Position numbers and translations under genes: made by a program
The notes under the pieces: model-generated
Seen by the model: only the letters and a program-made list of their open reading frames with translations
Told to the model about the DNA's origin: nothing
Databases searched by the model: none
Source of the DNA: Acidovorax defluvii
GTDB taxonomy: Bacteria; Pseudomonadota; Gammaproteobacteria; Burkholderiales; Burkholderiaceae_C
NCBI GenBank assembly: GCA_003268905.1
Contig: QLTU01000021.1
Location: 1-64,000, forward strand
Direction of reading: 5' to 3'
DNA: 64,000 nt
Part shown: in pieces, positions 20,476 through 41,979 of the stretch
Layout: each line of letters starts with the position of its first letter
Position numbering within the stretch: position 1 is the stretch's first letter

Positions 20476-21279
20476 TCACGTTGTGGATAAGTTCTTGGCT
20501 GTCTTCTCCTTCTTGGTGGTCTGTGGTGGTTGCTGTGCAGAGCTGTTCTTGAATCGATAGCTGTCGTTACCGGTTTCCAGAATATGGCAGTGATGCGTAA
20601 GCCGGTCCAGCAATGCCGTAGTCATCTTCGCATCCCCGATCACACTGGCCCACTCGCTAAAGCTCAGGTTGGTGGTGATCACGACGCTGGTGCGCTCGTA
20701 CAGCTTGGACAGCAGGTGGAACAGCAAGGCGCCTCCTGACGTACTGAACGGCAGGTAGCCCAGCTCATCCAGGATCACCATATCGGCATAGGCCAGGCGG
20801 TGGGCCAACTGTCCGGGCTTGCCGTTGGCCTTCTCCTCCTCCAACGCATTGACCAGCTCCACCGTGGAGAAGAACCGCACCCTGCGGTGATGGTGCTCGA
20901 TGGCTTGCACCCCGAGGGCTGTGGCGATGTGGGTCTTGCCCGTACCCGGTCCACCCACCAGCACCACGTTGTTGGCGTTCTCCAAGAAGTCGCACCGGTG
21001 CAGCTGGCGTACCAGTGCCTCGTTCACCTCGCTGTGGCCGAAGTCAAACCCAGCCAGGTCCCGGTACGCCGGGAATCTGGCCACCTTCAATTGGTAGGCT
21101 ACCGAGCGCACCTCCCGCTCGGCGGTCTCGGCCTTGAGCAGTTGAGACAGGATGGGCTGTGCCGCATCGAAGGCCGGTGCACCTTGCTCAGCCAGTTCCG
21201 CAACCGCCTGGGCCATACCGTGCATCTTGAGCTCGCGCAACATGATCACGATGGAAGCGATGGCAGGGTCATGACGCAT
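20476..21279 (-). CDS. istB: IstB, IS21 helper ATPase
   Basis: A 267-residue AAA+ ATPase related to DnaC. Walker A is [11 protein letters not shown] (residues ~108-118), Walker B is [11 protein letters not shown], and [14 protein letters not shown] is the sensor block. IstB controls target choice and activates the IstA transposase. The start overlaps the end of istA by 11 bases. Full length and intact. Confidence 0.93.
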
Positions 21280-23214: not shown

Positions 23215-24189
23215 TTACTGCTCATTCAGGTTCAGAGATAATTTCTGTATGTTGGTGACCGCCTTCCCAAATCCCCGCAGCCACCAATCGAGCATGGCAC
23301 TATCAACCACAGTGGCGATAATTTCCAGCCAGCCGTCCTGGGCCTCTACGTATTGCTGATCGGTTGACAGGGGCGACTCGGTCAGGTGGAGGCCGGCATC
23401 CTTGGTAATGCGAAAACGCAATTGCACCCGATGCCCTTCGCCAAACCCAAACCGTCCATCGTCGTCGTATTTCTGCAAGTCAAATTCAGCAGGGCGCTCG
23501 AAAGTGAGCGTGGATGCCTCGGCCTTGCGAATGCGATGCAGGGCCAGGCTGCGCTCGTTGTTAAAGCCGTCAAAACGGCACACCAGGTAAAGACGCGGGC
23601 CTTGCTGAGCCAAGCCGAGGGGCATGACCGTGATCGACCGGCGTTTGCCGGCAGAGTTCTGGTAGTCCAGCGTCAGCCAGCGGTTGGCGTACAGTGCCTC
23701 GCTCACGGCTTCGAATACTCCCGGGACAATCTTGGGCGGCAACAGCGGCTGGCTGGTTGCTACAACGCGCACCTTCCCAGGCCACTCGCGCTCCAGGCGT
23801 GCGGTGCTCTCTGAACCCAGATTGCGTTTGGCTTGACTGAAAAATGCATCCATGGACTTCATCAATCGGGGAGGCAGAAGGTTCTTGAGGTGCTCCTCAG
23901 CCAACTGCAGCAACAGCGATTCTTGGGGCGTGAGATTGGGCATAGCCAATGCCTTGGCCTGCTCCAACCAGCGATAGCCATAAGGCTTGCTGCGGTCGTC
24001 ACGCTCGATCTCAAAATGCTCGCTGAGCATCTCCAACTGCCGCTGGATGGTGCGCAGTTCGCGCTCAATACCTGCATCCTTGAGTTGCTGGTGGAGTTCG
24101 CCGGCTGTGACCTTGCGGCCACGCGGAATGCGGCGCATCAGTTCGACGGCGAGCAGAACGGTTTCGAGGGTGTCGGATCGCTTCGCCAT
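23215..24189 (-). CDS. WYL-domain transcriptional regulator
   Basis: A 324-residue regulator. Residues ~1-85 are a winged helix (KVTAGELHQQL, then RTIQRQLEML). A linker follows, and residues ~150-235 form the WYL domain, with LDYQNSAGKRRSITVMPLGL and LYLVCRFDGFNN; the WYL triad itself reads LYL. A WCX-like C-terminal domain ends the protein. WYL proteins commonly control defence islands and may bind nucleic acid or nucleotide ligands. The start lies one base after the DUF2779 stop, so it is the last gene of the AAA+/DUF2779/WYL operon and probably represses it. Confidence 0.85.
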   Translation of the reverse strand: MAKRSDTLETVLLAVELMRRIPRGRKVTAGELHQQLKDAGIERELRTIQRQLEMLSEHFEIERDDRSKPYGYRWLEQAKALAMPNLTPQESLLLQLAEEHLKNLLPPRLMKSMDAFFSQAKRNLGSESTARLEREWPGKVRVVATSQPLLPPKIVPGVFEAVSEALYANRWLTLDYQNSAGKRRSITVMPLGLAQQGPRLYLVCRFDGFNNERSLALHRIRKAEASTLTFERPAEFDLQKYDDDGRFGFGEGHRVQLRFRITKDAGLHLTESPLSTDQQYVEAQDGWLEIIATVVDSAMLDWWLRGFGKAVTNIQKLSLNLNEQ

Positions 24190-24190
24190 C

Positions 24191-25690
24191 TCAGACTTTC
24201 AGGGTTGTGCGAGAGAACGCGGCCCACAAGCGCACCATCGCATAAGTGTCCAGCGCACAGTAATCCAGGAGCTGCTGCTCAATCTTGGCCTTGCGTGCGG
24301 CGGAGGTTTGCGGCGAGATCGCTTCCATAAAGGCCTCCATGGCCGTGCCGCCATCCTGAACGCCGTCAAGGTCGCCATAGTTCAGATCGGGGCACAGCGC
24401 TGGGAGTACCGCCTTGATGCTCCAGCTGCCTTGCTGACTCGGGTGGTAGTAGTGTTCACGTGCCACACGCAGGAGATCAACCACACGCTCATTGAGCGCC
24501 AGGAGGGCCTTGGCCAGACGTGGAAAGCGCTGCGCCAGATCGCGGATACGGGCCATCTCAAAACCTGCGTTGTAGACAAAGATGGGGCCGCGCTCACCAC
24601 AGGCGCCGACCAAAGCCTCTGCAAAACCTCTTGACGGGTCGCCGCCGGAAAGGTCGAGAAAGGCTTGCTGTACAAGCTTCCCTGTGCGCGCGAGGCGATG
24701 CACACTGAACTGAAACGGAATCTGCTGATAGGGGCGAGTACCCTTCCAGATCGGTACAGCGAACTGGATGGTTTCGAAATCCATGAAGTACGCAGGCAGC
24801 TTGTGCTGCGCCAGATCCCGTGCCGCACTCACTTGGTCAAAATGCACCTTACCAGTGAGCGTGACCTTCTTCACACGCCGTTGTTTTTCGTTGAGCAATC
24901 CATCCGGTACGTCGCGCAATTCGCTCAATCCGTGAGCCTCGATGTGCGCTTTCAGCGCTTTGTTCTGGGCTCCTGGCAACCAATGCAGGGGTTGTTCCAC
25001 CAGGGGCTCGTTGCTTTGGCAATAGGCGAAGAATCCACACTCATAGGGGGCACTGCACTGCTCACCGGTTAAGACCCGAGGCTCTTTCTTTTTGGCAACG
25101 ATCTCATGGGCCTCTTCGATCCAACCGCGAACCTCTGCTTCGCGTGGAAACGCTTCGTCGGTCAGGTCGTTCTCGACTAAGAGCCCGCTGTAGTCGCCAC
25201 CGCCCGGGTAGACCCAAGAGCTGTCGATATGTGCAAGTGCAATCCCTGCCAAGGGGACACCACAGGAGTGGGCCAAAAACGCCTGCACGGCGGCATCGTC
25301 CCGGTGGTAGTCCTTCACGGAGGTAGAGGACTTCACCTCGACCATGCGCCAAGCCCGGTTTCCGGCTTGCTTGATAGGCAGCATGACGTCCGCAAAGGCC
25401 AGTGCCCCTTCGGCACGGAATCCAGCCTCAAAGATCGGCTGGTTCGTCTGTAGGAGTGCTTGCGTTCGCGTAAAGGCTGCGTCAAAGCCTCCCACTTGGA
25501 AATCAATGAGGGTGCCTTTGCCTTTGGGGTCGTAGACATGCCTGGCAATATCCCCAACCTGATGGCCCACCATGAAGCTGGCCAGGGTGGCCGAGGAGTC
25601 TTCTCGCAGGTCTGGGCGATGTACCTCCAGCCACAGCCGCTTGGGGCACTGCCGAAACGCCAGCAGCTTGGATTTTGAAAGTACACGCAA
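24191..25690 (-). CDS. DUF2779 protein: predicted Cas4/RecB-like nuclease plus DEDD exonuclease
   Basis: About 499 residues from TTG 25690, which gives LRVLSKSKLLAFRQC and has AGGGGG six bases upstream; ATG codons at 25726 and 25768 are alternatives without a good site. In numbering from 25768, the N-terminal half has the PD-(D/E)XK pattern: D127 in FADVML, E144 and K146 in VEVKSS. C41 plus C238, C244 and C250 have the arrangement of a Cas4/AddB-type iron-sulphur cluster. The C-terminal DUF2779 region has D330/E332 (MDFETI), D431 and D507 in YCALDTYAMV, as in DEDD 3'-5' exonucleases. Two nucleases in one chain suggests attack on DNA or RNA. It is followed by the WYL gene and preceded by the AAA+ gene. 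Confidence 0.75.
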   Translation of the reverse strand: MRVLSKSKLLAFRQCPKRLWLEVHRPDLREDSSATLASFMVGHQVGDIARHVYDPKGKGTLIDFQVGGFDAAFTRTQALLQTNQPIFEAGFRAEGALAFADVMLPIKQAGNRAWRMVEVKSSTSVKDYHRDDAAVQAFLAHSCGVPLAGIALAHIDSSWVYPGGGDYSGLLVENDLTDEAFPREAEVRGWIEEAHEIVAKKKEPRVLTGEQCSAPYECGFFAYCQSNEPLVEQPLHWLPGAQNKALKAHIEAHGLSELRDVPDGLLNEKQRRVKKVTLTGKVHFDQVSAARDLAQHKLPAYFMDFETIQFAVPIWKGTRPYQQIPFQFSVHRLARTGKLVQQAFLDLSGGDPSRGFAEALVGACGERGPIFVYNAGFEMARIRDLAQRFPRLAKALLALNERVVDLLRVAREHYYHPSQQGSWSIKAVLPALCPDLNYGDLDGVQDGGTAMEAFMEAISPQTSAARKAKIEQQLLDYCALDTYAMVRLWAAFSRTTLKV

Positions 25691-25736
25691 GGCTGACCCC
25701 CTCTTATTCTGAAGAAATTTTCCCATGGGTTGAGAC

Positions 25737-27827
25737 TCACAAAAACCCAATGGGGCGATTCGTGCCATGTTTCACCGCGCATTCGGCTTCGAGCGCCGAA
25801 ACGAGGGCGGCAGCAGACGTAATTGGCCGGAATCGGTGCTGGCGCACCACAGCCGCAAAATCCCCAGGCGTTAGCGACGGCAGCCGTGAAATCCTGGCTT
25901 GCTCATCTGGCAGAGGTTGCTGCAAGCCGAGTCCTTCGCAGTGACGCGACAGCAACTCCCACGCCTGGTCGGAGCGCAGAAAGTCGAACTTCACTTTGAG
26001 ATCGAACCGGCGCAAGGCTGCCTGGTCCAGACCCTCCATCAGGTTGGTCGAGGCCACAAACACGCCAGAGAACGATTCCATCTGGGTCAGCATTTCGTTG
26101 ACCTCACTCACTTCCCAGTTGTGTTGCGCACCTCGCCTGTCCTGCAGAAAGCTGTCCACCTCGTCGATTAACAGGACCGCGCCATCGCTTTGCGCTTCGC
26201 GGAAGGCTTTGGAGATGTTCTTTTCACTCTCACCCAACCACTTGGATTTCAGATCGGAAGCGCGTTTGACGAACAGAGGAACGCCAAGCTGATGAGCGAG
26301 CCATCGTCCGTAGGCGGTCTTGCCTGTGCCAGGCGGCCCGTACAGACAAAGCCTGCCAGAGCGTGCAGCGACAAGGCCGGCGGCGACAGCGGCCAGCTCT
26401 ACATCGGCATGAATGAAGCGTGGGTCGTAAACGTCCGGCAGTCTGTTTGGATCGTGCGAGAGCAGCGGACCGTGCCCCTGGGCTTCCATGGTGCTGGAGA
26501 TCAAGCGTTCCAACGCAGCTGCCGTCTTTTGAGGGCCAAGATCGTCCCGGATCAAGCGAATGACTGAACTCGCCTTTGCGACTACCGCAGGAGCGAGGGC
26601 TTCGGCCTCTGCTATGCGGGAAATCCGGTTGGCGTCAAGCAGCTCACCGCAGCTGCTTTGCAGAATCCGCTCGCGCTGCGTCTTGGGTGGAATGGGCAAC
26701 TCAAACACCATGTCAAAGCGGCGAATGAAGGCGGGATCGAGACCCCGCATGGAGTTGGACATCCATAGAGTGGGTACCGGATTCTCTTCGAGCATCCGGT
26801 TGATCCACGCCTTGCGAAGTTGGGCAGTGCTCTTGCTCCCGAAGAAGCTGTTTCCATCGTTGAATACGTCCTCGACCTCGTCGAAGGCGATCATCGCTTG
26901 CTGTTGGGAGAAGAAGCTCTGTGCGGCGCGAAATGCCCGCAAGCGACGCTCTCCGTTGATTGGGTCACCGTCGGAGTCCTCGCTTGCGACTTCAAACAAT
27001 TCACACCCCATCTCCTTGGCCAAGGCTCGCGCCAATTGGCTCTTGCCGGTTCCCGGCGCACCGTGCAGGAAGACGTTGACACCACGCCGACCCGTTTTCA
27101 TGGCGTGGCGAAGATAGGGGCACAGAATCTCCAGTGATGACTGGATATGGTTGTAGTCGGCCAAGCTCAGCTCTGCCGGGCTGGCGGCAGAGACCGTGCC
27201 CCGCAGGAGACTGATGGGGTCGGCCTTGGATGAGGCCATGAGATCTGCGAAGTCTTCAGACAACAGATCCAACTTGTAGCGCAACTCTTGGCTACCTTGA
27301 CGGGCCATCAAAACCAGACCGGATCTGGCAAGAATGCCAGTGGCGCTCAATGAGGCACGGACCTCAGATTCGGGGAGAGCAAGGATGACCGAAAGAGCAT
27401 GAAATACCTTGACGGACGAAAGCGGACCCAACCAATCAGCAGCGTCGTTCAAGAGGCGCTCGTTGTGGATAGAGACGGTGAACTCCAGCACTTTGCAGTC
27501 GTTCGTGCTCAGCCCCACCAGCTTGGACAGTTGTCCTACGTTATGGCCCAGGAGGGCGGACTGGGGAGCTCCGAACCACTGATCCTCAGCCTTCTGATGT
27601 AGTTGGCGCAGTTCAGACTGGACGGCCTTGAAATCGAACTCTCGGCTCGATGGGTCGATCCAGTGCCCCAAACCGAGCACTTCCGCCAATGCGTCGTTGT
27701 GAAACCCGTGCTGATGGAGAAACTCGCGGCACCCACGCAGCGGAACCAGAATGCGCAGCAACCAAAGACGAATGATCGGTTCCACATTGGCTGTACCAAA
27801 TGAGTTCGCAGCGCGGTGTCTTAGCAT
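25737..27827 (-). CDS. Tandem AAA+ ATPase
   Basis: A 696-residue protein from ATG 27827, which has AAGGAG upstream; the frame extends 33 codons further without support. An N-terminal region of about 240 residues resembles nothing I know. Two AAA+ modules follow: Walker A HGAPGTGKS (255-263) with Walker B MIAFDEVED, and Walker A YGPPGTGKT (496-504) with Walker B VLLIDEVDS. Both have sensor and arginine-finger blocks (IRRFDMVFELP; ALRRFDLKVKF), so both are probably active. The layout recalls Cdc48-like unfoldases. First gene of the AAA+/DUF2779/WYL operon; it may remodel a substrate for the nuclease. Confidence 0.85.
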   Translation of the reverse strand: MLRHRAANSFGTANVEPIIRLWLLRILVPLRGCREFLHQHGFHNDALAEVLGLGHWIDPSSREFDFKAVQSELRQLHQKAEDQWFGAPQSALLGHNVGQLSKLVGLSTNDCKVLEFTVSIHNERLLNDAADWLGPLSSVKVFHALSVILALPESEVRASLSATGILARSGLVLMARQGSQELRYKLDLLSEDFADLMASSKADPISLLRGTVSAASPAELSLADYNHIQSSLEILCPYLRHAMKTGRRGVNVFLHGAPGTGKSQLARALAKEMGCELFEVASEDSDGDPINGERRLRAFRAAQSFFSQQQAMIAFDEVEDVFNDGNSFFGSKSTAQLRKAWINRMLEENPVPTLWMSNSMRGLDPAFIRRFDMVFELPIPPKTQRERILQSSCGELLDANRISRIAEAEALAPAVVAKASSVIRLIRDDLGPQKTAAALERLISSTMEAQGHGPLLSHDPNRLPDVYDPRFIHADVELAAVAAGLVAARSGRLCLYGPPGTGKTAYGRWLAHQLGVPLFVKRASDLKSKWLGESEKNISKAFREAQSDGAVLLIDEVDSFLQDRRGAQHNWEVSEVNEMLTQMESFSGVFVASTNLMEGLDQAALRRFDLKVKFDFLRSDQAWELLSRHCEGLGLQQPLPDEQARISRLPSLTPGDFAAVVRQHRFRPITSAAALVSALEAECAVKHGTNRPIGFL

Positions 27828-27955
27828 GACGGGTATCTCCTTATGAATGAAATCCATCATCCTGGATGCTGCGACATGATGTGTCGCACAGAACATGGCT
27901 TCAATAGGAGCGCAGCGCTTGAACAAAATGCTACCGCGAGACGCCCCAAGGTCAA

Positions 27956-28283
27956 TTGCTCAGGGACAAATGGCACGCCCACCGTCCCCGGTCGCTTCTC
28001 ACGTGGCTCGCTCATCGGCTGCAGCGCGAGGTCTCCGCACCGGAAGTCGCCCACATCTGGGCGCACCCCTTCCATGCGAAATTTCCTGCGCATCTGCGTG
28101 TGCTCGTAAAGCACGGCACGTGCCTAGACGCAGCAACGCGCGGCGCGGCCTATCTCTATAACCTGCTACTCGCCGAACTCGCCGAACTCGCCGAACTCGC
28201 CGAACCCGAGGAAACGCGGAGGCCGGAGTTGGCGGACGAGTACCGCGAGAAGCTGGCCACGTGGGCCCAGACCGATCTTCCGG
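27956..28283 (+). pseudogene. DUF6361-family fragment
   Basis: A plus-strand fragment of about 109 codons with features I recall from DUF6361: AKFPAHLRVLVKHGTCLDAA, then GAAYLYNLLLAEL and ADEYREKLATWA. Four tandem CTCGCCGAA units (28169-28204) give a LAE repeat inside it. The N-terminal part is missing, as a stop lies just upstream, and the C-terminal part is cut by a solo IS21 end at 28284. It converges on the SNF2 helicase gene. From memory, DUF6361 genes can neighbour helicase/PLD genes, so it may be a lost component of that block. Confidence 0.6.
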
Positions 28284-28308
28284 GGTCACTTCTGGATGGA
28301 AATCAACA
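28284..28308 (+). repeat. Solo IS21 end
   Basis: Twenty-five bases starting GGTCACTTCT and ending TGGAAATCAACA match the right tip of the complete IS21 element (22879-22903) except for three bases. No IS21 genes are nearby. It is a scar of a past insertion or of recombination between two copies. Confidence 0.7.
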
Positions 28309-28353
28309 CGCTGCTGTCCGAATCCCCTCGGTGTGGGGGATTACAGCGGGCTG

Positions 28354-31119
28354 TTAGTCGGAGGGTTTTGTGTCAAATCGAGGCGCAAAAGAGTTGATCT
28401 CCTGCACAAGAGCGTCCGGCAGACCGCCGGCCTCTGCCAGTTTGGGCGAGATCACCATCCCATGAAGTTGCGCGCGCAGGTTGTCCCAACGCTCTCGCAA
28501 TACCTCCCAGTTCTTCTCGTCGTAGGTGCCTTTGAAGATGACGGGCCGAACCGCGATGCGGGGCAATTCGAGCGTTATGTCCTCGGCATCTGGAATGGCC
28601 GCGAGCGTCTTTTCCCAAAGGCTGCCTACACGGTCGACGCGGCCCACCTGCTGCTCCACTACACCCGGGTTCCACTCCGGGTGCAGCAGAATCACGGTCT
28701 TGCAGGCCTTGTGCAGATTGAGACCTTCTCGTCCCACCACGGATTGAGCCACGAGCACCGCTGGATGGCTGTTCGGACGGTTGAATGCCAGCTGCAATAG
28801 GCGGCGGGTGTCCTGGCCGGTGTTCCCGTACATCAGGCGTGCAAAGCCCCCTTCGGGGCGACGGTAGTCCTCTGCAAGCCGAGTTTCCAGTCGCGCCCAA
28901 CGTGCTTCAGCTGTTTCGCTTTCGTTTTCCGAAGGGCCATCGGCATCATCGTTGCGGTCGGCCGTGGCATGGATCAGTTCCTCGAAAGCAGCGGCAACGG
29001 CAATAGGATCTTGTTCCTCCGGTTTCATGTCCGTCAATTCCTGCAGCGCCCGGGCTACGAGGGCCAGGGGTGAGTCATGAACGTCTGTGTTTTGGTCAAC
29101 CGAACGACAAAAGGCGTCAAACACCAACCGGGAACTGCCCGGTGCTAGGCCCGCGTCGATGCGGTCCAACAGCCCGACGCGTGCTGCATGGCGACTGGCT
29201 TCAAGTGATTGATATTGCGATGCTAGTTTCTCGTCAAGTTCGCATCTATCCAGCGCACCGACCCTGCCGAGTTGGCGGTGGGCCGCCTGGATGGCAGGCC
29301 ATTCGTCCCCGTGTACTTTGGCTTGGGCCCAGGGCTTTCCGGCGTCCAGCGCTCGCAGCATAAAGCGGCCGTTGAGCAGTGCCACCAGTGCCTTCAGCGG
29401 CAAGGTGTAACGACCGAAAACCAGAACTTTCTCGCCTGCCTCGCACACCTCTTCGATCGCCTCGACCGCAGCTAGGATTGCCGGATGGTCGAGCAATGGA
29501 TCATCGGTGCTGTCAAAAGCTGAAGCGATGCTTTTTTGCCACCAGGCGACACGCTCCAACCGCTTCACCTTGGCGATCGCATCAGTCGACGTGGCCAGTT
29601 CGGACTCACTGTTCGTCTCCCGGGTCTCTTTCGCATCGAGATCCAGCTGATTCTGGTCGAGATTACGGTCTAGCCTTGCCTGATCCAGCAGCGCCGCGAT
29701 GCCGTGGCCATTACCCATGGTCAGCCGCAACCGCTTGGAGACAGAGTCTTCCTTTTGGATGGCGACGATAGACAAGGCCTCGGCCGCACACACAGCCTGG
29801 CGCCAGGCGGGTGTCAGGTCAGTGGGTTCCACCGGAATTTCAAGTTCATGTCGATAGGCATGCAGCGGCAGTTTGGCGCGCAGGGAAAACGTCTGGACTG
29901 AAGCCAGCTGGCGTTTGTCGCGTCGCAGCAGGTAGGGCGACAAGGTCTGTTGGAATAGTTCAGACGCCCGTTGATAGTCCTGTCTGGACTGGACGTCGTT
30001 GGGGCATTTGCGCACCTGCGCGCAGGCCCTTGCATAGAGCAGAAAAACGTCGTTGTCCGTGTTGGGAGGACTGATGTTTTCGGCACCGATGCGTTCGAGT
30101 GTCTGATGCCATTGGCTAACATCGAGCTCTACTGGCGTTGCAGTCATAGCCACACGCCTTGGCGTTACGCCCGGCAGAATTACGCGGTCGATCATCCTGG
30201 AAAGGCCACTGCCGTCTCCACGGCTCTTGTGGGCTTCATCGATAATCACTAGGTCGAAACTTCCTAGACCCAGGCCGACGGCAGATTCAAGCCAAGGGCG
30301 AAGCTGCTTGTTTCGCTCGTAATCCTCTGCCTCCATGGCACCAGGCCATGGAGTTTCTTCTGCCAGCTTCTCAAGGAGTTGGCGAGCGGGATGCTTGGGC
30401 GGATGTACCCATATCGACTCGACGATGTTGTGAGCAGCGCGCAGGACTTTAGCGCCCCCTGAGTTGTCCCGATCCTCTTCACAAGGGAAGTCGCAGGAAA
30501 CACTACTGCTCGAAAGTTTGCTTTCAAAATAACGGAAGCCTTTCAAAAAACGACTGTCCTTTAGCTCGCTTTCAAAATCGCTGAAGCATCGTGGAAAACG
30601 AGCGCTCGATTTTTTTCTCCAAAAGGCGTGAAGCGCCGGCAGCAAGGCCCATCGCCAGGGATCGCTGTCTTTGCCTAGCCGCCAGTTTGTAAAGGCATGC
30701 GAGATCAGTACGACCTCGCGCTCGAACCAGGGCATTGTCAACTGCTCTTGATCTCGCCATGCACCTAGAAACTGCCAAAGGCTGCGCAGCAGTTTCGGAG
30801 ACTCGACACCGCCGCCGCGGAGTTCGTCCTGCCACTGCGGCCCGAGTCCCGGTGGCACCAGGATGGCCACCCGGCCGCCTGCCCGAATGACCGAGGCTGC
30901 CAACGTCACCGCGATGCGGGTCTTGCCCATGCCCACTTCGTCGGCAATCACCACACCGTTGTACGGAAGACGTTTTGCGATGCCGAGCAGGCTCGCGCGC
31001 TGACCAGCGTTGAGATACTCGTTTCTTTTGGCTGCTTCGCCTGCCGTCTCCGCCAGTGCGGCCAGGGACGTGAGTTGCCCGGCAACCACGTCCCAGCCCT
31101 TGAAAGATTTGCTCTTCAC
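28354..31119 (-). CDS. SNF2-family helicase/translocase
   Basis: A 921-residue superfamily 2 ATPase. Motif I is DEVGMGKTRIA (60-70), motif II is DEAH (294-297), and motif III is AMTATPVEL. The second RecA domain ends with GREGLNLHKACK and the motif VI block QQVGRVDRVGS, where R fingers contact ATP. A long insertion between the two cores (roughly residues 400-600) is helical and acidic. Full length. The start overlaps the PLD gene's end by four bases (ATGA). It would translocate along duplex DNA and present it to the PLD partner. It resembles helicases of DISARM-like and Dpd-like systems, but no methylase or dpdA is present. Confidence 0.88.
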   Translation of the reverse strand: MKSKSFKGWDVVAGQLTSLAALAETAGEAAKRNEYLNAGQRASLLGIAKRLPYNGVVIADEVGMGKTRIAVTLAASVIRAGGRVAILVPPGLGPQWQDELRGGGVESPKLLRSLWQFLGAWRDQEQLTMPWFEREVVLISHAFTNWRLGKDSDPWRWALLPALHAFWRKKSSARFPRCFSDFESELKDSRFLKGFRYFESKLSSSSVSCDFPCEEDRDNSGGAKVLRAAHNIVESIWVHPPKHPARQLLEKLAEETPWPGAMEAEDYERNKQLRPWLESAVGLGLGSFDLVIIDEAHKSRGDGSGLSRMIDRVILPGVTPRRVAMTATPVELDVSQWHQTLERIGAENISPPNTDNDVFLLYARACAQVRKCPNDVQSRQDYQRASELFQQTLSPYLLRRDKRQLASVQTFSLRAKLPLHAYRHELEIPVEPTDLTPAWRQAVCAAEALSIVAIQKEDSVSKRLRLTMGNGHGIAALLDQARLDRNLDQNQLDLDAKETRETNSESELATSTDAIAKVKRLERVAWWQKSIASAFDSTDDPLLDHPAILAAVEAIEEVCEAGEKVLVFGRYTLPLKALVALLNGRFMLRALDAGKPWAQAKVHGDEWPAIQAAHRQLGRVGALDRCELDEKLASQYQSLEASRHAARVGLLDRIDAGLAPGSSRLVFDAFCRSVDQNTDVHDSPLALVARALQELTDMKPEEQDPIAVAAAFEELIHATADRNDDADGPSENESETAEARWARLETRLAEDYRRPEGGFARLMYGNTGQDTRRLLQLAFNRPNSHPAVLVAQSVVGREGLNLHKACKTVILLHPEWNPGVVEQQVGRVDRVGSLWEKTLAAIPDAEDITLELPRIAVRPVIFKGTYDEKNWEVLRERWDNLRAQLHGMVISPKLAEAGGLPDALVQEINSFAPRFDTKPSD

Positions 31120-33125
31120 GGTTCTCCTCCTAACGCAGGCAACTCCGCCGTCTTCCAGCGTGCGTCTACCCGCGTCAGCATGCTTTCGTACATAGCGCCA
31201 TACGCAGATTCACCGGTCTCCGCGTAAGCCGGTCGGAAAGCCGGCACCCGAAGTGGGCTCAGTGGGTTCAGATCCAAAGTGCGGAAATAGCCCAGCACCG
31301 GGCTTTCCTCTAGCCGTGCCAGGGTCTGTTCCAGCCGTGCACACCAAGCCGGCCAGTCAGTCTGCAGCACGACGGTTTGGCGAGAGGCGATCCTCTCCAC
31401 CAGTTCCATCATCTGTCGCACCGGGTATGAGCTGACTCCACCTGCGCCCGCAGAAGGCGCGGCTTCCGAGTCGGGCTTCTTTGGATCGTTAGGGGCGGTA
31501 TCACCGGTGTCGTCCGGGCCATCGTCGCCATCAGCCACCGCCGGAAAATTCTCCAAAGCCCACCACGCGCTTTCGAAATCCAGCGCGGTCAAGGCGGACG
31601 CCGCCAGGCGGCCGAATTCATCCATGACGGGGATGAGGCAGCGGTGCTCCGCACCCTCCAATGTCCAACGAATCAGAACCTGTCGCGGCTTCGCAGCCGA
31701 CCAGGAAAAACCTGTCTCGTCCATGTAGCAGGGCTGCTCGGCTGGATCCAGAATCTCAAAATCAGTAGCGGTCGTCCCGGCCGGCGGCTGCAGTCGGCCA
31801 CCTTCCGGTGTCGACGCCCACACCACCCACGCTACCGGCGGTGCAACGAAGGGTGGACCATGCGGGGGCATGCCTTCGCCGACAGACAATTGGTCAATGT
31901 CGTCTATTGAGTGATCCCAGTGAACGGGCAGTAGGTTCGTGATGACCGTCTCTGGCGCGACATCGGCATTTGCGTACCAAGACAGCCCGATAGGAGCGAA
32001 TACAACACCGGCTTCCAGGTTGCCGCCATCCCGCGACATTTTCTTATCGAAACCGGGACCAGTTAGGTTGCCCGAACCGAGATAAACCCATGGCCGGTGG
32101 CACGAATTACTGCCGGATTTTTCGCTGGCACTGAAAAGGAATTTGGCATGGAGGCTGCGGCTGGCATGGCGGCCGAACAAAGGAGCCATGCTCGCTGCCG
32201 CCCTGACGTCCCAACCTTGCAGGTTCATGGCTGGCAAGGCGGATGCCACCACCTGACAGGCCGCAGGGTTGACGAACACATCGATATTGGCAGTGCCTGT
32301 CAGGGCTCGGTGTTCCCGCAGCGTGGCAACAATTTTTCCCAGCACGGCGGGTAACTGCCGATTGGGTAGGCCACCTTCAAAAAATCCTGAACCCATGGCA
32401 AGGTAATTGCGTGGCGCTGAGTCAGCCACTGCGTGGATCGCGTGCGGCAACTGCGCCAGAAAAGACGAGGCACGGTTGTCGATGAAGCGTGCAGGAGGTC
32501 CGTCCTTTGGAGCACATGCCTCCATCCAGTCGGCCAGCTTATGCATGCTGTCTTGTGTTTCGACGCCTGGCAGGCGATTGGTAGCATCGAGTATCCGAAG
32601 ATCGAACTGGGCTTGAAGGAAAGCGAATAGCGACCAGGCGGCGCTGAAGTCGGCACGTCTTTGGATCACATCGGCGTCTTCAGTCTCAAGATCTTCGGAT
32701 GCCACATCGATTGACCAGACCAGATCGAGGCTGTCTTCCACCGTCTGTCGAGTCCAGTTGCCGGTTGAGACAACCAAACGGACCCGCCAACGGCCGTCTC
32801 CCGATGCGTGGCGGAAACCAAGCAAGGCCACCTTGGCATGCAAAAGGCGAAACGGCCGCGCGCTTTCCTGGGCGATGGGTAGGTGAACTAGGCCCGGAAC
32901 CTCCACGGGACAGATGGCGGGATGGCCCGGGTCCAGCATCAGGGCCACCGAAAGAGCGCCACGCGACGCTCTTTGCGCTCTGGTCTCGCGCGTGAAACGT
33001 TCGATTGCCTGGTTGAGAAACAAAGCGTCGGCAGAGTAACCGCACATCCAACAAAAACCACTGCGGTAGTCGTCGGGCACATCGAAATACTGGATGAGCG
33101 ACAGAGGAGGCACGGGCTTAGCCAT
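31116..33125 (-). CDS. Phospholipase D-superfamily protein, predicted nuclease
   Basis: A 669-residue protein with two HKD-type motifs: H96-x-K98 followed by STGN at 120-123, and H326-x-K328 (SLHAKFLFS) followed by GSGN at 350-353. Two motifs in one chain make a complete PLD active site. In bacterial defence loci, proteins of this type are usually nucleases rather than lipases. The C-terminal 250 residues are a separate, proline-rich and acidic-linked region of unknown role. It overlaps the upstream 434-residue gene by eight bases and the SNF2 gene by four, so the three are translationally coupled. Confidence 0.8.
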   Translation of the reverse strand: MAKPVPPLSLIQYFDVPDDYRSGFCWMCGYSADALFLNQAIERFTRETRAQRASRGALSVALMLDPGHPAICPVEVPGLVHLPIAQESARPFRLLHAKVALLGFRHASGDGRWRVRLVVSTGNWTRQTVEDSLDLVWSIDVASEDLETEDADVIQRRADFSAAWSLFAFLQAQFDLRILDATNRLPGVETQDSMHKLADWMEACAPKDGPPARFIDNRASSFLAQLPHAIHAVADSAPRNYLAMGSGFFEGGLPNRQLPAVLGKIVATLREHRALTGTANIDVFVNPAACQVVASALPAMNLQGWDVRAAASMAPLFGRHASRSLHAKFLFSASEKSGSNSCHRPWVYLGSGNLTGPGFDKKMSRDGGNLEAGVVFAPIGLSWYANADVAPETVITNLLPVHWDHSIDDIDQLSVGEGMPPHGPPFVAPPVAWVVWASTPEGGRLQPPAGTTATDFEILDPAEQPCYMDETGFSWSAAKPRQVLIRWTLEGAEHRCLIPVMDEFGRLAASALTALDFESAWWALENFPAVADGDDGPDDTGDTAPNDPKKPDSEAAPSAGAGGVSSYPVRQMMELVERIASRQTVVLQTDWPAWCARLEQTLARLEESPVLGYFRTLDLNPLSPLRVPAFRPAYAETGESAYGAMYESMLTRVDARWKTAELPALGGEP

Positions 33126-34422
33126 GAGCGACCTCCGCTTCGATCGGATGCAACCAAGCGTTCAAGTTGCGCTCGATATCAAGGCTCAGCCACCACAAGT
33201 TGCGGATCCGATGGGAGATATCTGGCGGCCAGCCGAAATTGTCGGCAGGTGCGCTGTCTTCCTGGTCGTAGGTTGCGCCTGACGCGCTGGCCTCGGCATC
33301 GGCGGCCTCAAAGGCTTGGCCCGCACAAACATGGTCGCCGACCAGACGCAGAATGCGTCCGTCACGGGCTACGAGCTGACGCAACACGTTGTCATCGGCC
33401 GAAATCAACTCGCGGCAGAACGTGGTCGCTTCTTTGTCCTCATGCTGCAACTCCAGAAAAGCACGGGCTTTGAATTGCAAGTCGGAAAAAGGCTCGCGGA
33501 GCTGCTGTGGCAAGCTCGAGCCGATGAGAAAACGGTTCCCACGATCCCCAATGTGGACCTCGAGTTTGTTGAGAAGATCTTGCGCAGCATCTCGCGCAGC
33601 AAAAAATCCGGCGCCCGCGCGCATGTCGCTCCAGTGCTTCGGATCACTGATCTGCGTTGGCTGCTGTTCCCATTGACAGGGTGGTGCGTTTTCTCGGCGT
33701 GACTGAACCCAATTCAGCGCGTCGCGGCGCCGCTGACGCTCCCCCGAAGGACTGGCACTTGAGCCCTGAAGCAGACGCTCCCTGAGCAACGTGCACGCTT
33801 TCTCGGATAGGGGCTGCAGAGGCGAAAGCGCTTCCCGCAATACTGGTGAGTCAATTTTGTCGACCTGGCCCAGCACCCATTGAAGGAGGTGATCCGGCAC
33901 GCTGCGGCGGAAGGGTCGATGTTCCGCGAAAGCCGTTTCGACAAAAGCCAGTCCATCCTCGCTGCAACGGAAACTGTTGAACCGCCCACCACCCGGCTGG
34001 ACCAACCCCAAAGCCGGCAAGACGTTGACCGTTGCCATGCGCATAGGCTGGGTGACGTAGAAACCCGGCCGACTGGCGTTACGAAAGATGAAATCCTTGG
34101 CACTGAGGCCCGCCAGCTTGGTAGTTCCTCGAATACGGCCTTCACCGGCTTGCGGCTCTTCTGCCAACGCCATCCAGCAAGCCAGGGCCTCGATGGCGTT
34201 GGCAACCTCGATCTGGGTCACGCTCTTGCCCCGCAGAGCCGCTTGTTCCGCCACCATGACACCCAGAGTGGAGAACAATAGCTGCTTGCCAAACCAGACG
34301 CCACCGAGGCCGGGTACCGCTAGTTCGTTGAAAAGCCGAGTGCTGGATGCAAGACCCAAAGTCCGCACGCGCCTGACACTCTCGACACTGCCAGGTCCAA
34401 GGATTCCCCAAGAAGCACTCAT
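33118..34422 (-). CDS. Unknown protein, first gene of the helicase/PLD operon
   Basis: A 434-residue protein that I do not recognise. It begins MSASWGILGPGSVESVRRVR. The first 170 residues look globular and include a possible winged helix (KSVTQIEVANAIEALACWM). The middle is charged, and the end is tryptophan-rich (NLWWLSLDIERNLNAWLHP). There is no P-loop, nuclease motif, signal peptide or membrane segment. Tight coupling to the PLD and SNF2 genes suggests it is a component of one complex, perhaps a target-recognition subunit. An IS5 element inserted 59 bases upstream of its start may have altered or replaced its promoter. Confidence 0.7.
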   Translation of the reverse strand: MSASWGILGPGSVESVRRVRTLGLASSTRLFNELAVPGLGGVWFGKQLLFSTLGVMVAEQAALRGKSVTQIEVANAIEALACWMALAEEPQAGEGRIRGTTKLAGLSAKDFIFRNASRPGFYVTQPMRMATVNVLPALGLVQPGGGRFNSFRCSEDGLAFVETAFAEHRPFRRSVPDHLLQWVLGQVDKIDSPVLREALSPLQPLSEKACTLLRERLLQGSSASPSGERQRRRDALNWVQSRRENAPPCQWEQQPTQISDPKHWSDMRAGAGFFAARDAAQDLLNKLEVHIGDRGNRFLIGSSLPQQLREPFSDLQFKARAFLELQHEDKEATTFCRELISADDNVLRQLVARDGRILRLVGDHVCAGQAFEAADAEASASGATYDQEDSAPADNFGWPPDISHRIRNLWWLSLDIERNLNAWLHPIEAEVAHG

Positions 34423-34481: not shown

Positions 34482-35635
34482 GGCAATGCTGAAAAAGTCC
34501 CCGCTGCTTCTTCAGTCTGGGTAAATTACAGGGCCATGAAGCAGCAGACCCTTGCCATGGCGGCCGACACGCAGTCGGGCTTTGAACAACACCGCAAACC
34601 CACGCGGCGCGATGAATTCCTCAAGACCATGGATGCGCTGGTGCCCTGGGCTGCGCTATGCGAGGAGATTGCCCCGCACTATCCCAAGGCCGGCAATGGA
34701 CGCCCCCCCATTGGTTTGGAGCGCATGCTGCGCATTCACTTCATCCAGCACTGGTTCAACCTGGCTGACTTGGCGTGCGAGGAAGCCCTATACGACAGTG
34801 CCAGCCTGCGCCGCTTTGTGGGCATAGATCTGGGCTGCGAGCCGGTCCCAGACGCCACCACGATGCTCAAGTTCCGCCACCTGCTCAACGACAACAAGTT
34901 GGGCCAAGCACTGTTCACGCGCGTCGGCAAGGAGTTGCAGGCTCGCGGTATCAAGGTCAACACCGGCACCATCGTGGACGCCACCATCATCGGCGCGCCC
35001 AGCTCCACCAAGAACGCTGACAAGGCCAGAGACCCCGAAATGCACCAGACCAAGAAGGGCCAGCAGTGGTATTTCGGCATGAAGTTGCACATTGGCGTGG
35101 ATAGCCAAACCGGGCTGACCCACAGCGCGGTGGTCACGGCGGCCAACGTGCATGACAAACACCCGCTGCCCGATTTGCTGCACGGCAACGAACAGCGCGT
35201 CTACGGCGACTCGGCCTACGCCAGTCAGAAAGCACTGATAGCGAGTAAAGCACCCCAAGCCAAGGACTTCACCAACCAGCGCACGCGACGTGCGGGCGAG
35301 GTGAACGAGGTGCAGCGGGCCAAGAACCGCAACAAGTCGCGGGTACGTGCCAAGGTCGAGCATGTCTTTGCGGTGGTCAAGCGCCTGTGGGGATTCACCA
35401 AGGTGCGCTACCGTGGGCTACAAAAGAACGCCACGCGCGCATTCACGGCCTTGGCGCTGGCCAACATTTACCTGTGCCGCAGTCATCTGTTGGGACAGGT
35501 GCGCCCGTAAGGGCGGAAATCGGGCCTCAGCGCCCCGCGAACTGCCCAAATGGGCCGCGCGAGAGGCATAAAAGTCCAAAAAACTGCGTCATCCAGGTTT
35601 GCGCGGAAATTTTCGACGGCTTGTTCAGCGTAGCC
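34482..35635 (+). mobile_element. Complete IS5-family element with TTAG target duplication
   Basis: An element of 1154 bases. Its tips are GGCAATGCTGAAAAAG (34482) and, read inward from the right, GGCTACGCTGAACAAG (35635), 13 of 16 bases identical. TTAG occurs on both sides (34478-34481 and 35636-35639), the expected 4-base duplication of IS5. One intact transposase gene lies inside. The clean duplication points to a recent insertion. Confidence 0.88.
34536..35510 (+). CDS. IS5-family transposase
   Basis: A 324-residue DDE transposase. Its N-terminal domain includes GRPPIGLERMLRIHFIQHWF and the LYDSASLRRFVGIDL block. The catalytic residues are D in TIVDATIIGAP, D in VYGDSAYAS, and E in RAKVEHVFAVVKR. 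Length is normal and there is no programmed frameshift. It belongs to the IS5 group proper and lies alone within the element. Confidence 0.93.
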   Translation: MKQQTLAMAADTQSGFEQHRKPTRRDEFLKTMDALVPWAALCEEIAPHYPKAGNGRPPIGLERMLRIHFIQHWFNLADLACEEALYDSASLRRFVGIDLGCEPVPDATTMLKFRHLLNDNKLGQALFTRVGKELQARGIKVNTGTIVDATIIGAPSSTKNADKARDPEMHQTKKGQQWYFGMKLHIGVDSQTGLTHSAVVTAANVHDKHPLPDLLHGNEQRVYGDSAYASQKALIASKAPQAKDFTNQRTRRAGEVNEVQRAKNRNKSRVRAKVEHVFAVVKRLWGFTKVRYRGLQKNATRAFTALALANIYLCRSHLLGQVRP

Positions 35636-35739: not shown

Positions 35740-36111
35740 TCACCCTGCAGCCGTCTCCGCAATCAGTACATCGGCTGGGATGCCCAGGCTCTTGTGCAGT
35801 CTGCGGATCATGGCCAGCGTCAGCGGGCGCTTGCGGTTCAGGACTTCGTAGACGCGGTTGCTTTTGCCGATGATCGGCTCAAGATCTTTGACGGACAGAC
35901 CGCTCTGATCCATCCGGAATTTGATGGCTTCCACCGGATCTGGCGCGGTGATGGGCACGTGCTTGGCCTCGTAGGCTTGCACCAGCGTGGCCAGGATGTC
36001 CAGGCGATCCCCCTCCGGCGTACCCAGATCAGGGTCGGACTCCATCAAGGCCGCAATCTCTTTGAGCGTGGCCTTGTAGTCTGCTTCGGTGTGGATAGGG
36101 CGGATGTCCAT
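35740..36111 (-). CDS. higA: HigA-family antitoxin
   Basis: A 123-residue antitoxin. Residues ~60-118 form an XRE-type helix-turn-helix (SVKDLEPIIGKSNRVYEVLN), with the family-typical LNRKRPLTLAMIRRLHKSLGIP. The N-terminal part carries the HTEADYKATLKEIAALM block. It lies 18 bases downstream of the toxin gene, which is the reversed order typical of HigBA. It should bind the operator at 36445-36461. Confidence 0.9.
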   Translation of the reverse strand: MDIRPIHTEADYKATLKEIAALMESDPDLGTPEGDRLDILATLVQAYEAKHVPITAPDPVEAIKFRMDQSGLSVKDLEPIIGKSNRVYEVLNRKRPLTLAMIRRLHKSLGIPADVLIAETAAG

Positions 36112-36129: not shown

Positions 36130-36432
36130 TCAGGCCATTTCAACGGTTTCTGCGTCCACTGCGTCGTACTCTTTGTGGGTGCCGACGAACTTCACGTAAA
36201 CGATCTGCAATTTGTATGCAATGGCCACGATCAGCCGATAGTCATTGTCTTTGATGTTAAAGACCACGCGACCGTTCTTCAGCACGGTGGCGCTGCGGTA
36301 CTGCGCATTGATGTCAGCGGGCTGGGTCCAGGTCGAACTGGTGGCTTCCTCGTACCAAGCCTTCAGCGGCTGCTCGGCGTCGGGATAGCGCTCCCAGAAG
36401 GCCCGAAGGGTAGACACGGCAATCACTCGCAT
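36130..36432 (-). CDS. higB: HigB-family mRNA interferase toxin
   Basis: A 100-residue toxin of the HigB_toxin family. It starts MRVIAVSTLRAFWERYPDAE and contains NGRVVFNIKDNDYRLIVAIAY and FVGTHKEYD, the family hallmarks. The fold is RelE-like, and such proteins cut mRNA on the ribosome. The gene comes first in the operon, with the antitoxin downstream. Intact. Confidence 0.9.
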   Translation of the reverse strand: MRVIAVSTLRAFWERYPDAEQPLKAWYEEATSSTWTQPADINAQYRSATVLKNGRVVFNIKDNDYRLIVAIAYKLQIVYVKFVGTHKEYDAVDAETVEMA

Positions 36433-39876: not shown

Positions 39877-41952
39877 TCACTCAACCCCCAACGCCTTGAA
39901 CGCAGCATCCACCGGATCTGAATAGAAGCTGGTCTGGAACTTGGCAAACAACTCACCCGGCACGGAAGGGATGTCCGTCACGCTCGACATCGGCAGCAGG
40001 ATGCGTTTGGCGCCCGCATCAAAGGCCACTTGCATGCTCTCCGCCAGATTACGCACCTGAACAATGGTGCCGCCCAGACTCATGTCTCCCAACACAGCCA
40101 ATTGCGACTGCACAGGTTTCGCTAGGGCTGCCGAGCACAGCGCAATGAAGCTGGCCAGCGTCAGCGCTTGTGGGGCACCGCTGTTTTGCAGCTCCACCAG
40201 GTGGGTATGAAAATCCCGCTCGCCCGGCTTGATGGAGGCACTCACCCGCGATGAGTTGGCTTTGAAGTAGTCAAACGCCACCTTGACTGCCTCCCGTGGC
40301 GCTGCCCCGGACACGTTGACCTTGCCGCCGCCCGGTATGGACTGGATCTCCAGCCGGTAGATGCCTGGCATTTCCGAAGCGCCCATGCTGATGGTGTGCA
40401 AAGTGCCTGGTTGCAGGCGCCCCTCAGGCACCAGTGCACCGCCCGACTGCTCCGGCACGGTCACGAAGCGCTCCACACCGTCTTCCAAATCGATGTAGCT
40501 GAAATGCACGTCGTAAAACTCCATACCGCCGATCTTCTTGAGCTGCTCCTTCACGCGGCGTCGAGTTTCCAGGGCATATTCCAGGCACTTGCGCACCGAA
40601 TCCTTGGTGTACTCGCCGTTCGGACACACCAGCTTGAGCAGGCCTGACGTGGTGCGGCGCACGGCAATGGTGTCGCGCTGGTTCAGGTTGTTGCCCAGCT
40701 TGAACCACTTGTCGATGGCATCGGCAAAGCTGTACTTGCGCATCTCGCGCAGGTACTCGGCCAGGTAGTCCACAATCAGACCGTACTGGTTGGTAAAGAA
40801 CTCGGGCCGCATCTTGGGGATTTCCCAGCCTGGCACGTAGGCGTGAAAGCGGTCAAAAAAGGCCGAGTCGATCATGGCCTCCGGGAACGGGGCCAGCAGA
40901 TGCGAGGTTTTGACTAGCGACTCCACACTCTGGTTGATGTTGCCCACGAAGACCATGGCTGCACTGGCGTTGATGGACTCACGGCCACGGCTGAACGAGC
41001 CCGAAGCCATGTAGTCCTTCATGATCTGCACACCATCGTGGTCCTTGAAGTTGATCCCCGCAACTTCATCAAAAGCCACCACGTCCCACAAGCCCACTAG
41101 CCCCACCTTGCGGGCGCTCATGTTGTAGAACAGATTGGCCACGGTGGTCTGCCCGCCCGACACCAGAATGCTGTTGGGGCTGATCTCTTTGTAGATGTGG
41201 CTCTTGCCGGTGCCTCGCGGTCCCAGCTCGCAGAAGTTGTAGTTGTTTTCCACCAGCGGCACCATGCGCGCCAGCAGGTGCCACTTTTCGCGCTCCTTGA
41301 AGCAGGTGGGCTCCATGCCGGTGGAGCGGATCAGCGCGTCGATCCACTGCGCATCGGTGAACGCCTTGCGCGCCTCAAACAGGGCCTGCATGTCCATGTT
41401 GGGCATCTGGATGGGCTTGAGCTCGGTCACCGTGAAAGGCGAGCCGCGTTGGTCTTCCTCAAAGTGGTACTTCAGCGTGACGATGCACCAGATGCCTCCC
41501 ACCAGCAGCTTCTCGAACTGGCGCACGTAGGTGTCGGAAATCTCGGCGTTCTTCACGCCCAGGTTGGACAGCAGCGCTTCGTACAGGTCACGCTTTTCGT
41601 TGAGCTTGACAGTGATTTTGTCGATCACCTTGTACGTGCCGCTCTCGCGCACCTTCGACTTGACCTTTTCTGCCTCGTCTGCGCGCACATAGTTTTCAGC
41701 CAGTACGCGCTTGACCATCTGCAGCCCCTTCTGGATGGTGGCCTCGTCGTTGCTCGCGCAGTACATGCCCAGCAGGTACTCCAGCACGTACACCGGCACA
41801 TTGGCGCCTTCCTTGATGAGCTTGGTCAGATCCTTGCGGACCACCTTTCCAGCGAAGTGCGTGTTGAGCAGATCGTCGAGGCTCGCGCCTGCAGTGAACT
41901 CCAATGCTTCGGATGGTGGCGCGGCGGTAGGGGTGTTCAGTTCTTGTGTCAT
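39877..41952 (-). CDS. brxL: BrxL, Lon-like AAA+ protein of BREX type 1
   Basis: A 691-residue protein. An N-terminal domain (1-200) precedes an AAA+ module with Walker A GPRGTGKS (244-251) and Walker B VVAFDEVAG. The C-terminal domain resembles Lon protease (GASEMPGIYRLEIQ; GDMSLGGTIVQVRNL) but lacks the Ser-Lys dyad in its usual form. Known BrxL forms DNA-translocating barrels and is needed for phage restriction, not for methylation. Last gene of the BREX locus, 27 bases after pglZ. Full length. Confidence 0.93.
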   Translation of the reverse strand: MTQELNTPTAAPPSEALEFTAGASLDDLLNTHFAGKVVRKDLTKLIKEGANVPVYVLEYLLGMYCASNDEATIQKGLQMVKRVLAENYVRADEAEKVKSKVRESGTYKVIDKITVKLNEKRDLYEALLSNLGVKNAEISDTYVRQFEKLLVGGIWCIVTLKYHFEEDQRGSPFTVTELKPIQMPNMDMQALFEARKAFTDAQWIDALIRSTGMEPTCFKEREKWHLLARMVPLVENNYNFCELGPRGTGKSHIYKEISPNSILVSGGQTTVANLFYNMSARKVGLVGLWDVVAFDEVAGINFKDHDGVQIMKDYMASGSFSRGRESINASAAMVFVGNINQSVESLVKTSHLLAPFPEAMIDSAFFDRFHAYVPGWEIPKMRPEFFTNQYGLIVDYLAEYLREMRKYSFADAIDKWFKLGNNLNQRDTIAVRRTTSGLLKLVCPNGEYTKDSVRKCLEYALETRRRVKEQLKKIGGMEFYDVHFSYIDLEDGVERFVTVPEQSGGALVPEGRLQPGTLHTISMGASEMPGIYRLEIQSIPGGGKVNVSGAAPREAVKVAFDYFKANSSRVSASIKPGERDFHTHLVELQNSGAPQALTLASFIALCSAALAKPVQSQLAVLGDMSLGGTIVQVRNLAESMQVAFDAGAKRILLPMSSVTDIPSVPGELFAKFQTSFYSDPVDAAFKALGVE

Positions 41953-41979
41953 TCGCGTTTTAGAAGAGACCGCATTCCA

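What the first reader, a model, noticed from the sequence alone, without database searches (positions are those of the whole stretch)
28354..34422. SNF2 helicase / two-motif PLD / unknown protein operon
Three overlapping genes (8- and 4-base overlaps) encode a 434-residue unknown, a 669-residue PLD protein and a 921-residue SNF2 helicase. Helicase plus PLD recalls DISARM and Dpd, but there is no methylase, no DUF1998 protein and no dpdA. Self-discrimination would have to be achieved in another way, perhaps by the unknown protein.
Basis: partly seen in the sequence, partly recalled or inferred. Interest (0 to 1): 0.7.

Follow-up and report, generated by a model that had tools for sequence, protein, structure and literature searches.

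The report
Azaca-like three-gene defence operon
Three bacterial genes that travel together appear to encode a virus-defence machine: a DNA motor, an enzyme resembling a human DNA-repair protein, and a third protein of an undescribed family; it resembles the poorly understood Azaca system but has a different first gene.

Summary
In detail: three overlapping minus-strand genes, A (434 aa), B (669 aa) and C (921 aa), are present and open. They are not a remnant of a larger known system. In 81 loci found through B, A lies upstream in 78 and C downstream in 76; each exception is at a contig end. A, B and C distances correlate at 0.90-0.94. The set is rare and patchy.

B is not an HKD phospholipase D: residues 1-418 model as a Tdp1-like (tyrosyl-DNA phosphodiesterase) fold with two HKN motifs, invariant in 81 of 81 aligned sequences. 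C is an intact SNF2-type ATPase. A is confidently modelled but matches no family; winged-helix resemblance is weak.

The nearest known system is Azaca (DUF6361-PLD-helicase): same gene order, HKN-type PLD, and in both a PD-(D/E)XK-UvrD pair may sit in front. But A shows no relation to ZacA, and B and C are remote relatives. I call it an Azaca-like system with a different first subunit; it is not DISARM or Dpd. Defence is inferred, not shown. An AAA-DUF2779-WYL module beside it is an optional companion; a ZacA fragment and an insertion sequence adjoin it.

The parts
33118..34422 (-). Gene A, 434 aa: first gene of the unit; no known family; model mostly helical, possibly two winged-helix domains
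   Evidence: no family; pLDDT 90.9; weak fold matches; conserved position
31116..33125 (-). Gene B, 669 aa: PLD-superfamily protein with a Tdp1-like fold (residues 1-418) and two HKN motifs (H96, K98, N123; H326, K328, N353)
28354..31119 (-). Gene C, 921 aa: SNF2-type helicase/ATPase with intact motifs
25737..27926 (-). Optional companion: tandem AAA ATPase, best PADLOC match IetA
   Evidence: next to A-B-C in part of the loci; common without A-B-C
24191..25768 (-). Optional companion: DUF2779 protein with weak Cas4-like N-terminal part
   Evidence: in 3 of 81 related loci
23215..24189 (-). Optional companion: WYL-domain protein, probably a regulator
   Evidence: WYL clusters in 22 of 81 related loci
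27956..28357 (+). ZacA (DUF6361)-like fragment of 133 aa, opposite strand, between C and the AAA gene; adjoining, role unknown
   Evidence: E 3.3e-13, model positions 196-287 of 396; Pfam DUF6361 only E 0.016, under its cutoff
34482..35635 (+). Insertion sequence about 55 bases upstream of A's start codon: DDE transposase 34536-35510, terminal inverted repeats matching at 14 of 18 bases, 4-base duplication TTAG
   Evidence: the name IS5 family is my recall

Best explanation
A-B-C is a complete three-gene, mobile defence module of the Azaca kind with a different first subunit. Proposed working: C, an SNF2 ATPase, moves along double-stranded DNA and presents strands or ends to B; B, a Tdp1-like phosphodiesterase, breaks phosphodiester bonds through a covalent histidine-DNA intermediate; A binds DNA or bridges B and C and sets where the complex acts. 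No methylase belongs to the unit, so self/non-self discrimination would rest on the structure or state of the DNA (free, blocked or replicating ends) rather than on a base mark. The AAA, WYL and nuclease genes are optional additions. Shown: the gene set, its co-inheritance, intact motifs. Predicted: the folds. Inferred: complex formation, DNA cleavage, defence, the mode of discrimination.
For: The same 7 of 72,556 plasmid records hold A and B; A in 78 and C in 76 of 81 loci, the rest at contig ends; A/B/C distance correlations 0.90-0.94 over 71 sequences; one A-B fused frame in Paracoccus. B: Tdp1-like model and HKN residues in 81 of 81. C: SNF2 motifs intact. Rare: A and B hit the same 2 of 299 genomes, one of them the window's own; 0 of 23 same-genus genomes has A. 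Plasmid-borne and spread over several phyla with tree labels mixed. Defence genes beside it: BREX, type I restriction, mads, Kiwa, DruH, Hhe and others. Azaca: same order and HKN-type PLD.
Against: No phage-resistance or enzyme data. No matched control was run for the defence neighbours, and many neighbours are ordinary genes. A has no trusted fold match. The only A-B fusion is a single sequence and could be a sequencing indel. B's top Tdp1 rows are nearly tied with a bacterial PLD (Z 20.5), and Pfam's Tyr-DNA_phospho gives only E 0.17. The weak ZacB match is not specific.
Confidence: 0.6

Rival explanations
1. It is a DNA-protein-crosslink repair unit: C strips or remodels proteins on DNA, B removes 3'-phosphotyrosyl or similar adducts as eukaryotic Tdp1 does, and A guides it. 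Its place among defence genes would be incidental.
For: Fold and HKN motifs of B; Tdp1's known chemistry (PMC5750209, passages).
Against: Rare and patchy (2 of 299 genomes, 0 of 23 of the genus), on plasmids, beside defence genes; a repair gene would more likely be widely kept.
Confidence: 0.15
2. It is true Azaca: A is a ZacA that diverged beyond sequence recognition.
For: Same order; HKN-type PLD in both; C-ZacC 96.9% by profile comparison; both can follow a PD-(D/E)XK-UvrD pair; a ZacA fragment adjoins the operon in the window.
Against: A-ZacA 0.2-0.3%; no PADLOC match for 8 of 8 A proteins at E up to 10; the UvrD proteins of the two contexts share only 26-34% and the PD-(D/E)XK proteins compared had no BLAST match; C-ZacC similarity may be general SNF2 similarity.
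Confidence: 0.15
3. The unit is really six genes: AAA, DUF2779 and WYL are obligatory sensors or regulators of A-B-C.
For: Same strand in the window; AAA-DUF2779-WYL-A-B-C in L015 and L070; AAA and WYL together in 12 of 81 loci.
Against: AAA was clustered in only 15 of 81 loci although 65 have at least 4 kb upstream of A; AAA relatives occur in 31 of 299 genomes, of which 2 have A and B.
Confidence: 0.1

Closest known systems
Azaca (ZacA DUF6361, ZacB PLD, ZacC helicase)
   Same: Three genes in the order accessory-PLD-helicase; two HxK...N motifs in ZacB and in B; both can sit behind a PD-(D/E)XK-UvrD pair
   Different: A is unrelated to ZacA by sequence and profile; B-ZacB 31.9-60.6% and C-ZacC 80.0-96.9% by profile comparison, so remote
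DISARM
   Same: A PLD protein and an SNF2 helicase (C is similar to DrmD)
   Different: C far under the DrmD cutoff (73.8 against 610 bits); no DrmA/DrmB-type gene or methylase in the conserved set
Dpd
   Same: An SNF2-type helicase (C is weakly similar to DpdE)
   Different: 36.5 against 500 bits for DpdE; the conserved set is three genes only
PADLOC candidate PDC-M27
   Same: C's best PADLOC match is PDC-M27C (1.6e-19); one of 7 B proteins matches PDC-M27B (E 0.018)
   Different: The best stretch of C is residues 764-840 only; no counterpart of A was found
Eukaryotic Tdp1 (as a protein, for B)
   Same: Predicted fold (VIA Z 21.6, 346 residues) and HKN residues
   Different: About 10% identity; extra C-terminal 250 residues; part of a three-gene operon

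Membership tests
Azaca | First gene encodes ZacA (DUF6361) | tested here: not met
   No PADLOC hit for 8 of 8 A proteins at E up to 10; no DUF6361 hit among 64 A proteins in Pfam; profile comparison 0.2-0.3%
Azaca | Second gene encodes ZacB (PLD) | tested here: inconclusive
   7 of 7 B proteins match the ZacB model, best 2.9e-9, but that model also rings in 44 of 299 genomes and 5 of 14 controls; profile comparison 31.9-60.6%; motifs in register
Azaca | Third gene encodes ZacC helicase | tested here: inconclusive
   C matches ZacC at 2.8e-11 but DrmD and PDC-M27C score better; profile comparison 80.0-96.9%, which may be general helicase similarity
Azaca | Gene order accessory-PLD-helicase | tested here: met
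Azaca | Protects against phages | not testable with these tools
   Needs an experiment
DISARM | DrmD helicase at its curated cutoff | tested here: not met
   73.8 bits against 610
DISARM | DUF1998 protein and methylase in the operon | tested here: not met
   The conserved set is A, B, C; no DISARM family hit for A and none for B in the window; one of 7 B relatives hits DrmC at 0.011
Dpd | DpdE helicase at its curated cutoff | tested here: not met
   36.5 bits against 500
Tdp1 (for B) | HKN catalytic motifs, no HKD Asp | tested here: met
   81 of 81 aligned sequences, the window's included; human residues from PMC9424690
Tdp1 (for B) | Tdp1 fold | tested here: met
   Predicted model: VIA Z 21.6; first 27 rows Tdp1, next a bacterial PLD at 20.5
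Tdp1 (for B) | Pfam Tyr-DNA_phospho above cutoff | tested here: not met
   11.2 bits against 22
Tdp1 (for B) | 3'-phosphodiesterase activity | not testable with these tools
   Needs an assay
SNF2 helicase (for C) | Walker A, DEAH and C-terminal helicase motifs | tested here: met
   Nearly invariant in 81 sequences; Pfam Helicase_C and SNF2-rel_dom above cutoff
Winged-helix DNA-binding proteins (for A) | Clear structural match | tested here: inconclusive
   Rows under Z 6, e.g. 2fok_B Z 5.6, rmsd 5.5 over 166 residues

The most novel reading that the evidence does not exclude
The system attacks DNA ends instead of unmarked sequences: B uses Tdp1 chemistry to strip proteins from, or leave 3'-phosphates on, the ends of invading or replicating DNA, so that primers cannot be extended or capped ends are opened to helicase-nucleases such as the neighbouring UvrD/PD-(D/E)XK pairs. 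A circular chromosome would be spared without any methylase because it offers few such ends. Azaca, whose PLD has the same active-site type, would work alike, with ZacA and A as interchangeable sensors.
Probability: 0.17. Interest if true: 0.8.

Novelty: new variant of a known kind. Interest (0 to 1): 0.52.

Why it matters
It would widen Azaca, whose mechanism a 2026 review lists as unknown (PMC12926258, passage), into a class with exchangeable first subunits. The PLD subunits of both carry a Tdp1-type (HKN) active site rather than HKD, which gives a concrete biochemical test (3'-end processing) of how a defence without a methylase could tell self from non-self.

Tried and rejected
DISARM and Dpd: scores far below cutoffs. 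ARMADA/BRIGADE (PMC12458937, passages) and BREX-related systems (PMC12839542, passages and outline): the passages seen describe other gene sets. Fold of A: no Foldseek match at E 0.001 in PDB or viral models; VIA rows are all under Z 6 and the first (1fok_A, Z 5.9) superposes badly (rmsd 15.3), so no fold is claimed. Sequence profiles of A and B against PDB chains: one hit for A at E 0.3, none for B. A in viral contigs: 0 confirmed of 11 pattern matches; B: 1 of 35; B in phage records: none.

Literature (open-licence PMC papers only): accession search 0 papers; DUF6361 0; DUF2779+WYL+phage 0; Zac-name search 504 papers, the 20 listed unrelated; Tdp1 plus anti-phage search 34 papers, the Tdp1 term in none of the 12 listed; PLD/SNF2 searches 5 and 7 papers, of which I saw passages of four (PMC12458937, PMC12839542, PMC10952713, PMC12926258) and only the listing of the others. 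Millman et al. 2022, the source of Azaca, was not among the 27 papers listed of 28; its role is recalled.

Limits: the genome census kept 80 of 125 relatives; the weakest 45 were not seen. B was the query, so B outside the set could be missed. Neighbour scans used at most two nearest frames of 120 aa or more per side: 100 of 102 selected upstream proteins (after removing known clusters and proteins of 1300 aa or more) and 118 of 127 downstream; only 25 families were printed each time. No matched control. In the full-length alignments short or broken copies and the fused Paracoccus A-B frame were dropped (81 A, 81 B, 81 C kept); L082's C hit was dropped, being another helicase on the other strand. 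L001 (a piece of the window's own genome) was left out of the counts.
Full report
Observation. The three frames are as described: A 33118-34422, B 31116-33125, C 28354-31119, all minus strand, overlapping by 8 and 4 bases.

One unit. tblastn of A and of B against 72,556 plasmid records each returned the same 7 records; in the 7, A, B and C follow each other, with B interrupted in Novosphingobium (L006). A genome scan with a B alignment gave 153 pattern matches, 125 relatives and 80 stored loci; a viral-contig scan gave 1 more. In these 81, A lies upstream on the same strand in 78 and C downstream in 76; the 3 and 5 exceptions are at contig ends. Taking the longest reading of B, no more than 13 bases separate A from B except in two loci whose A is split (L064, L077); L081 and L087 have split B or C frames. 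Distances of A, B and C correlate at 0.92, 0.94 and 0.90 over 71 sequences, with 0 of 500 permutations as high. In Paracoccus versutus A and B form one 1004-aa frame, a single case.

Distribution. In 299 genomes of the phylum the A and B profiles hit the same 2, one being the window's own. Of 40 relatives only the own genome has A; 0 of 23 of the same genus. On the B tree (81 rows, quick method) Betaproteobacteria need 13 and Gammaproteobacteria 11 label changes, at least 6 and 7 forced by starred branches. This fits horizontal transfer; the labels still cluster more than shuffled ones, and the tool warns that it is no proof.

B. Pfam sees only weak PLD and Tyr-DNA_phospho. The model (mean pLDDT 88.3) matches Tdp1 first: Foldseek 2.4e-8 and VIA Z 21.6 over 346 residues of 1-418, with 27 Tdp1 rows before a bacterial PLD at Z 20.5, a near tie. 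H96, K98, N123, H326, K328, N353, N369 and E371 are identical in 81 of 81 aligned sequences, and the positions of the HKD aspartate hold no Asp in any (the HKD spacing is recalled). Human Tdp1's catalytic residues are H263, K265, N283, H493, K495 and N516 (PMC9424690, passages). Tdp1 cleaves 3' adducts and can remove a 3' nucleoside, leaving a 3'-phosphate (PMC5750209, passages). The three ZacB proteins looked at show HPK...SRN and HAK...GS(G/A)N. B's C-terminal 250 residues were not identified.

C. SNF2-type motifs are intact and nearly invariant in 81 sequences. Matches to DrmD, DpdE and others are far under curated cutoffs.

A. No family in PADLOC, Pfam or NCBIfam for the window protein; none in PADLOC for 8 members; only scattered hits at E 0.025 or worse for 64 members in Pfam, the commonest EarA in 5. 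The model is confident (pLDDT 90.9). Its helices and short strands near 40-165 and 297-367 look winged-helix to me. VIA rows include FokI (1fok_A Z 5.9 but rmsd 15.3; 2fok_B Z 5.6, rmsd 5.5 over 166), N.BspD6I (Z 4.8), a MukBEF chain (Z 4.8, rmsd 3.3 over 84) and an ORC chain (Z 4.5) among unrelated helical proteins; all are below what the tool calls trustworthy. Foldseek finds nothing at E 0.001.

Azaca. The Zac names came from PADLOC; I recognised Azaca from memory. Papers confirm its PLD-like domain (PMC10952713, passage) and helicase ZacC (PMC12278908, passage). Three of 299 genomes besides the window's own hold full-length ZacA, with ZacB and a large helicase-like frame beside them. Profile comparisons: A-ZacA 0.3%, B-ZacB 31.9% (60.6% with the smaller set), C-ZacC 96.9% (80.0%). 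The ZacB match of B is not specific (44 of 299 genomes, 5 of 14 controls). Context is parallel: a PD-(D/E)XK-UvrD pair precedes DUF6361-PLD in Bradyrhizobium, Rhizobium etli and Shinella plasmids and A-B-C in Haematobacter, Fuscovulum, Leisingera and five genome loci (L040, L067, L069, L072, L074). The UvrD proteins of the two contexts share 26-34%, and the one Azaca PD-(D/E)XK protein compared had no BLAST match to three of the A-B-C loci, so this is a shared habit rather than a shared cassette. Of the other three Azaca plasmid loci fetched, Halomarina and Phaeobacter lack the pair; Niveispirillum has two unannotated frames of similar size, not tested.

Companions. Of 81 loci, AAA clusters in 15, WYL in 22, both in 12, DUF2779 in 3, UvrD with PD-(D/E)XK in 6, an ADP-ribosylglycohydrolase in 4, PglZ in 2; 65 have at least 4 kb upstream of A. 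The window has A-B-C then AAA-DUF2779-WYL; L015 and L070 have AAA-DUF2779-WYL then A-B-C. AAA relatives at E 1e-50 occur in 31 of 299 genomes, so the AAA gene is not tied to A-B-C. Among 100 upstream and 118 downstream neighbours PADLOC shows type I restriction genes, mads, Kiwa, DruH, Hhe, reverse-transcriptase defence genes and others, one or two proteins per family. The Pfam families shown for the upstream set (25 of 69) are largely metabolic or regulatory. There was no control set.

Mechanism. The best-supported reading is an ATP-driven DNA-acting complex with B as phosphodiesterase, C as motor and A as binding or adaptor subunit. That it defends against phages is inferred from rarity, mobility, neighbours and analogy. 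The boldest reading not excluded is that its substrate is DNA ends, given Tdp1 chemistry and the recurrent helicase-nuclease neighbours.

Verdict. New variant of a known kind: it works like, but is not shown to be, Azaca. I found no description of it in the searches named under Tried and rejected, which cover open-licence papers only.

Noticed in passing
window 27956-28357 (+): A ZacA (DUF6361)-like fragment (model positions 196-287 of 396) lies between C and the AAA gene; no other frame of the fetched A-B-C loci matched the ZacA model at E 1e-3.
   Followed up: partly
window 34482-35635: An insertion sequence with a DDE transposase sits about 55 bases upstream of A, possibly in its promoter region.
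   Followed up: partly
window 36130-36432 and 35740-36111 (-): A HigB-type toxin gene (Pfam 2.3e-31) with a weak HTH partner next to it.
   Followed up: no
window 39877-44586 (-): BrxL- and PglZ-like genes of a BREX-type cluster; A-B-C also adjoins BREX genes in Haematobacter.
   Followed up: partly
window 20476-22819 (-): Two frames that look by eye like an IS21 helper and transposase on the far side of the WYL gene, so the six genes are flanked by insertion sequences; not tested with a tool.
   Followed up: no
L121, L122, L123 upstream of the DUF6361 gene: Azaca on rhizobial-type plasmids is preceded by a PD-(D/E)XK-UvrD pair, a possible accessory of Azaca.
   Followed up: partly
L003:11974-14988: A and B form one 1004-aa frame in Paracoccus versutus; real fusion or a sequencing indel.
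   Followed up: partly
L089 (IMG/VR contig, 74,967 bases): A contig filed as viral carries AAA, WYL, ADP-ribosylglycohydrolase, A, B, C, PD-(D/E)XK and UvrD together.
   Followed up: no
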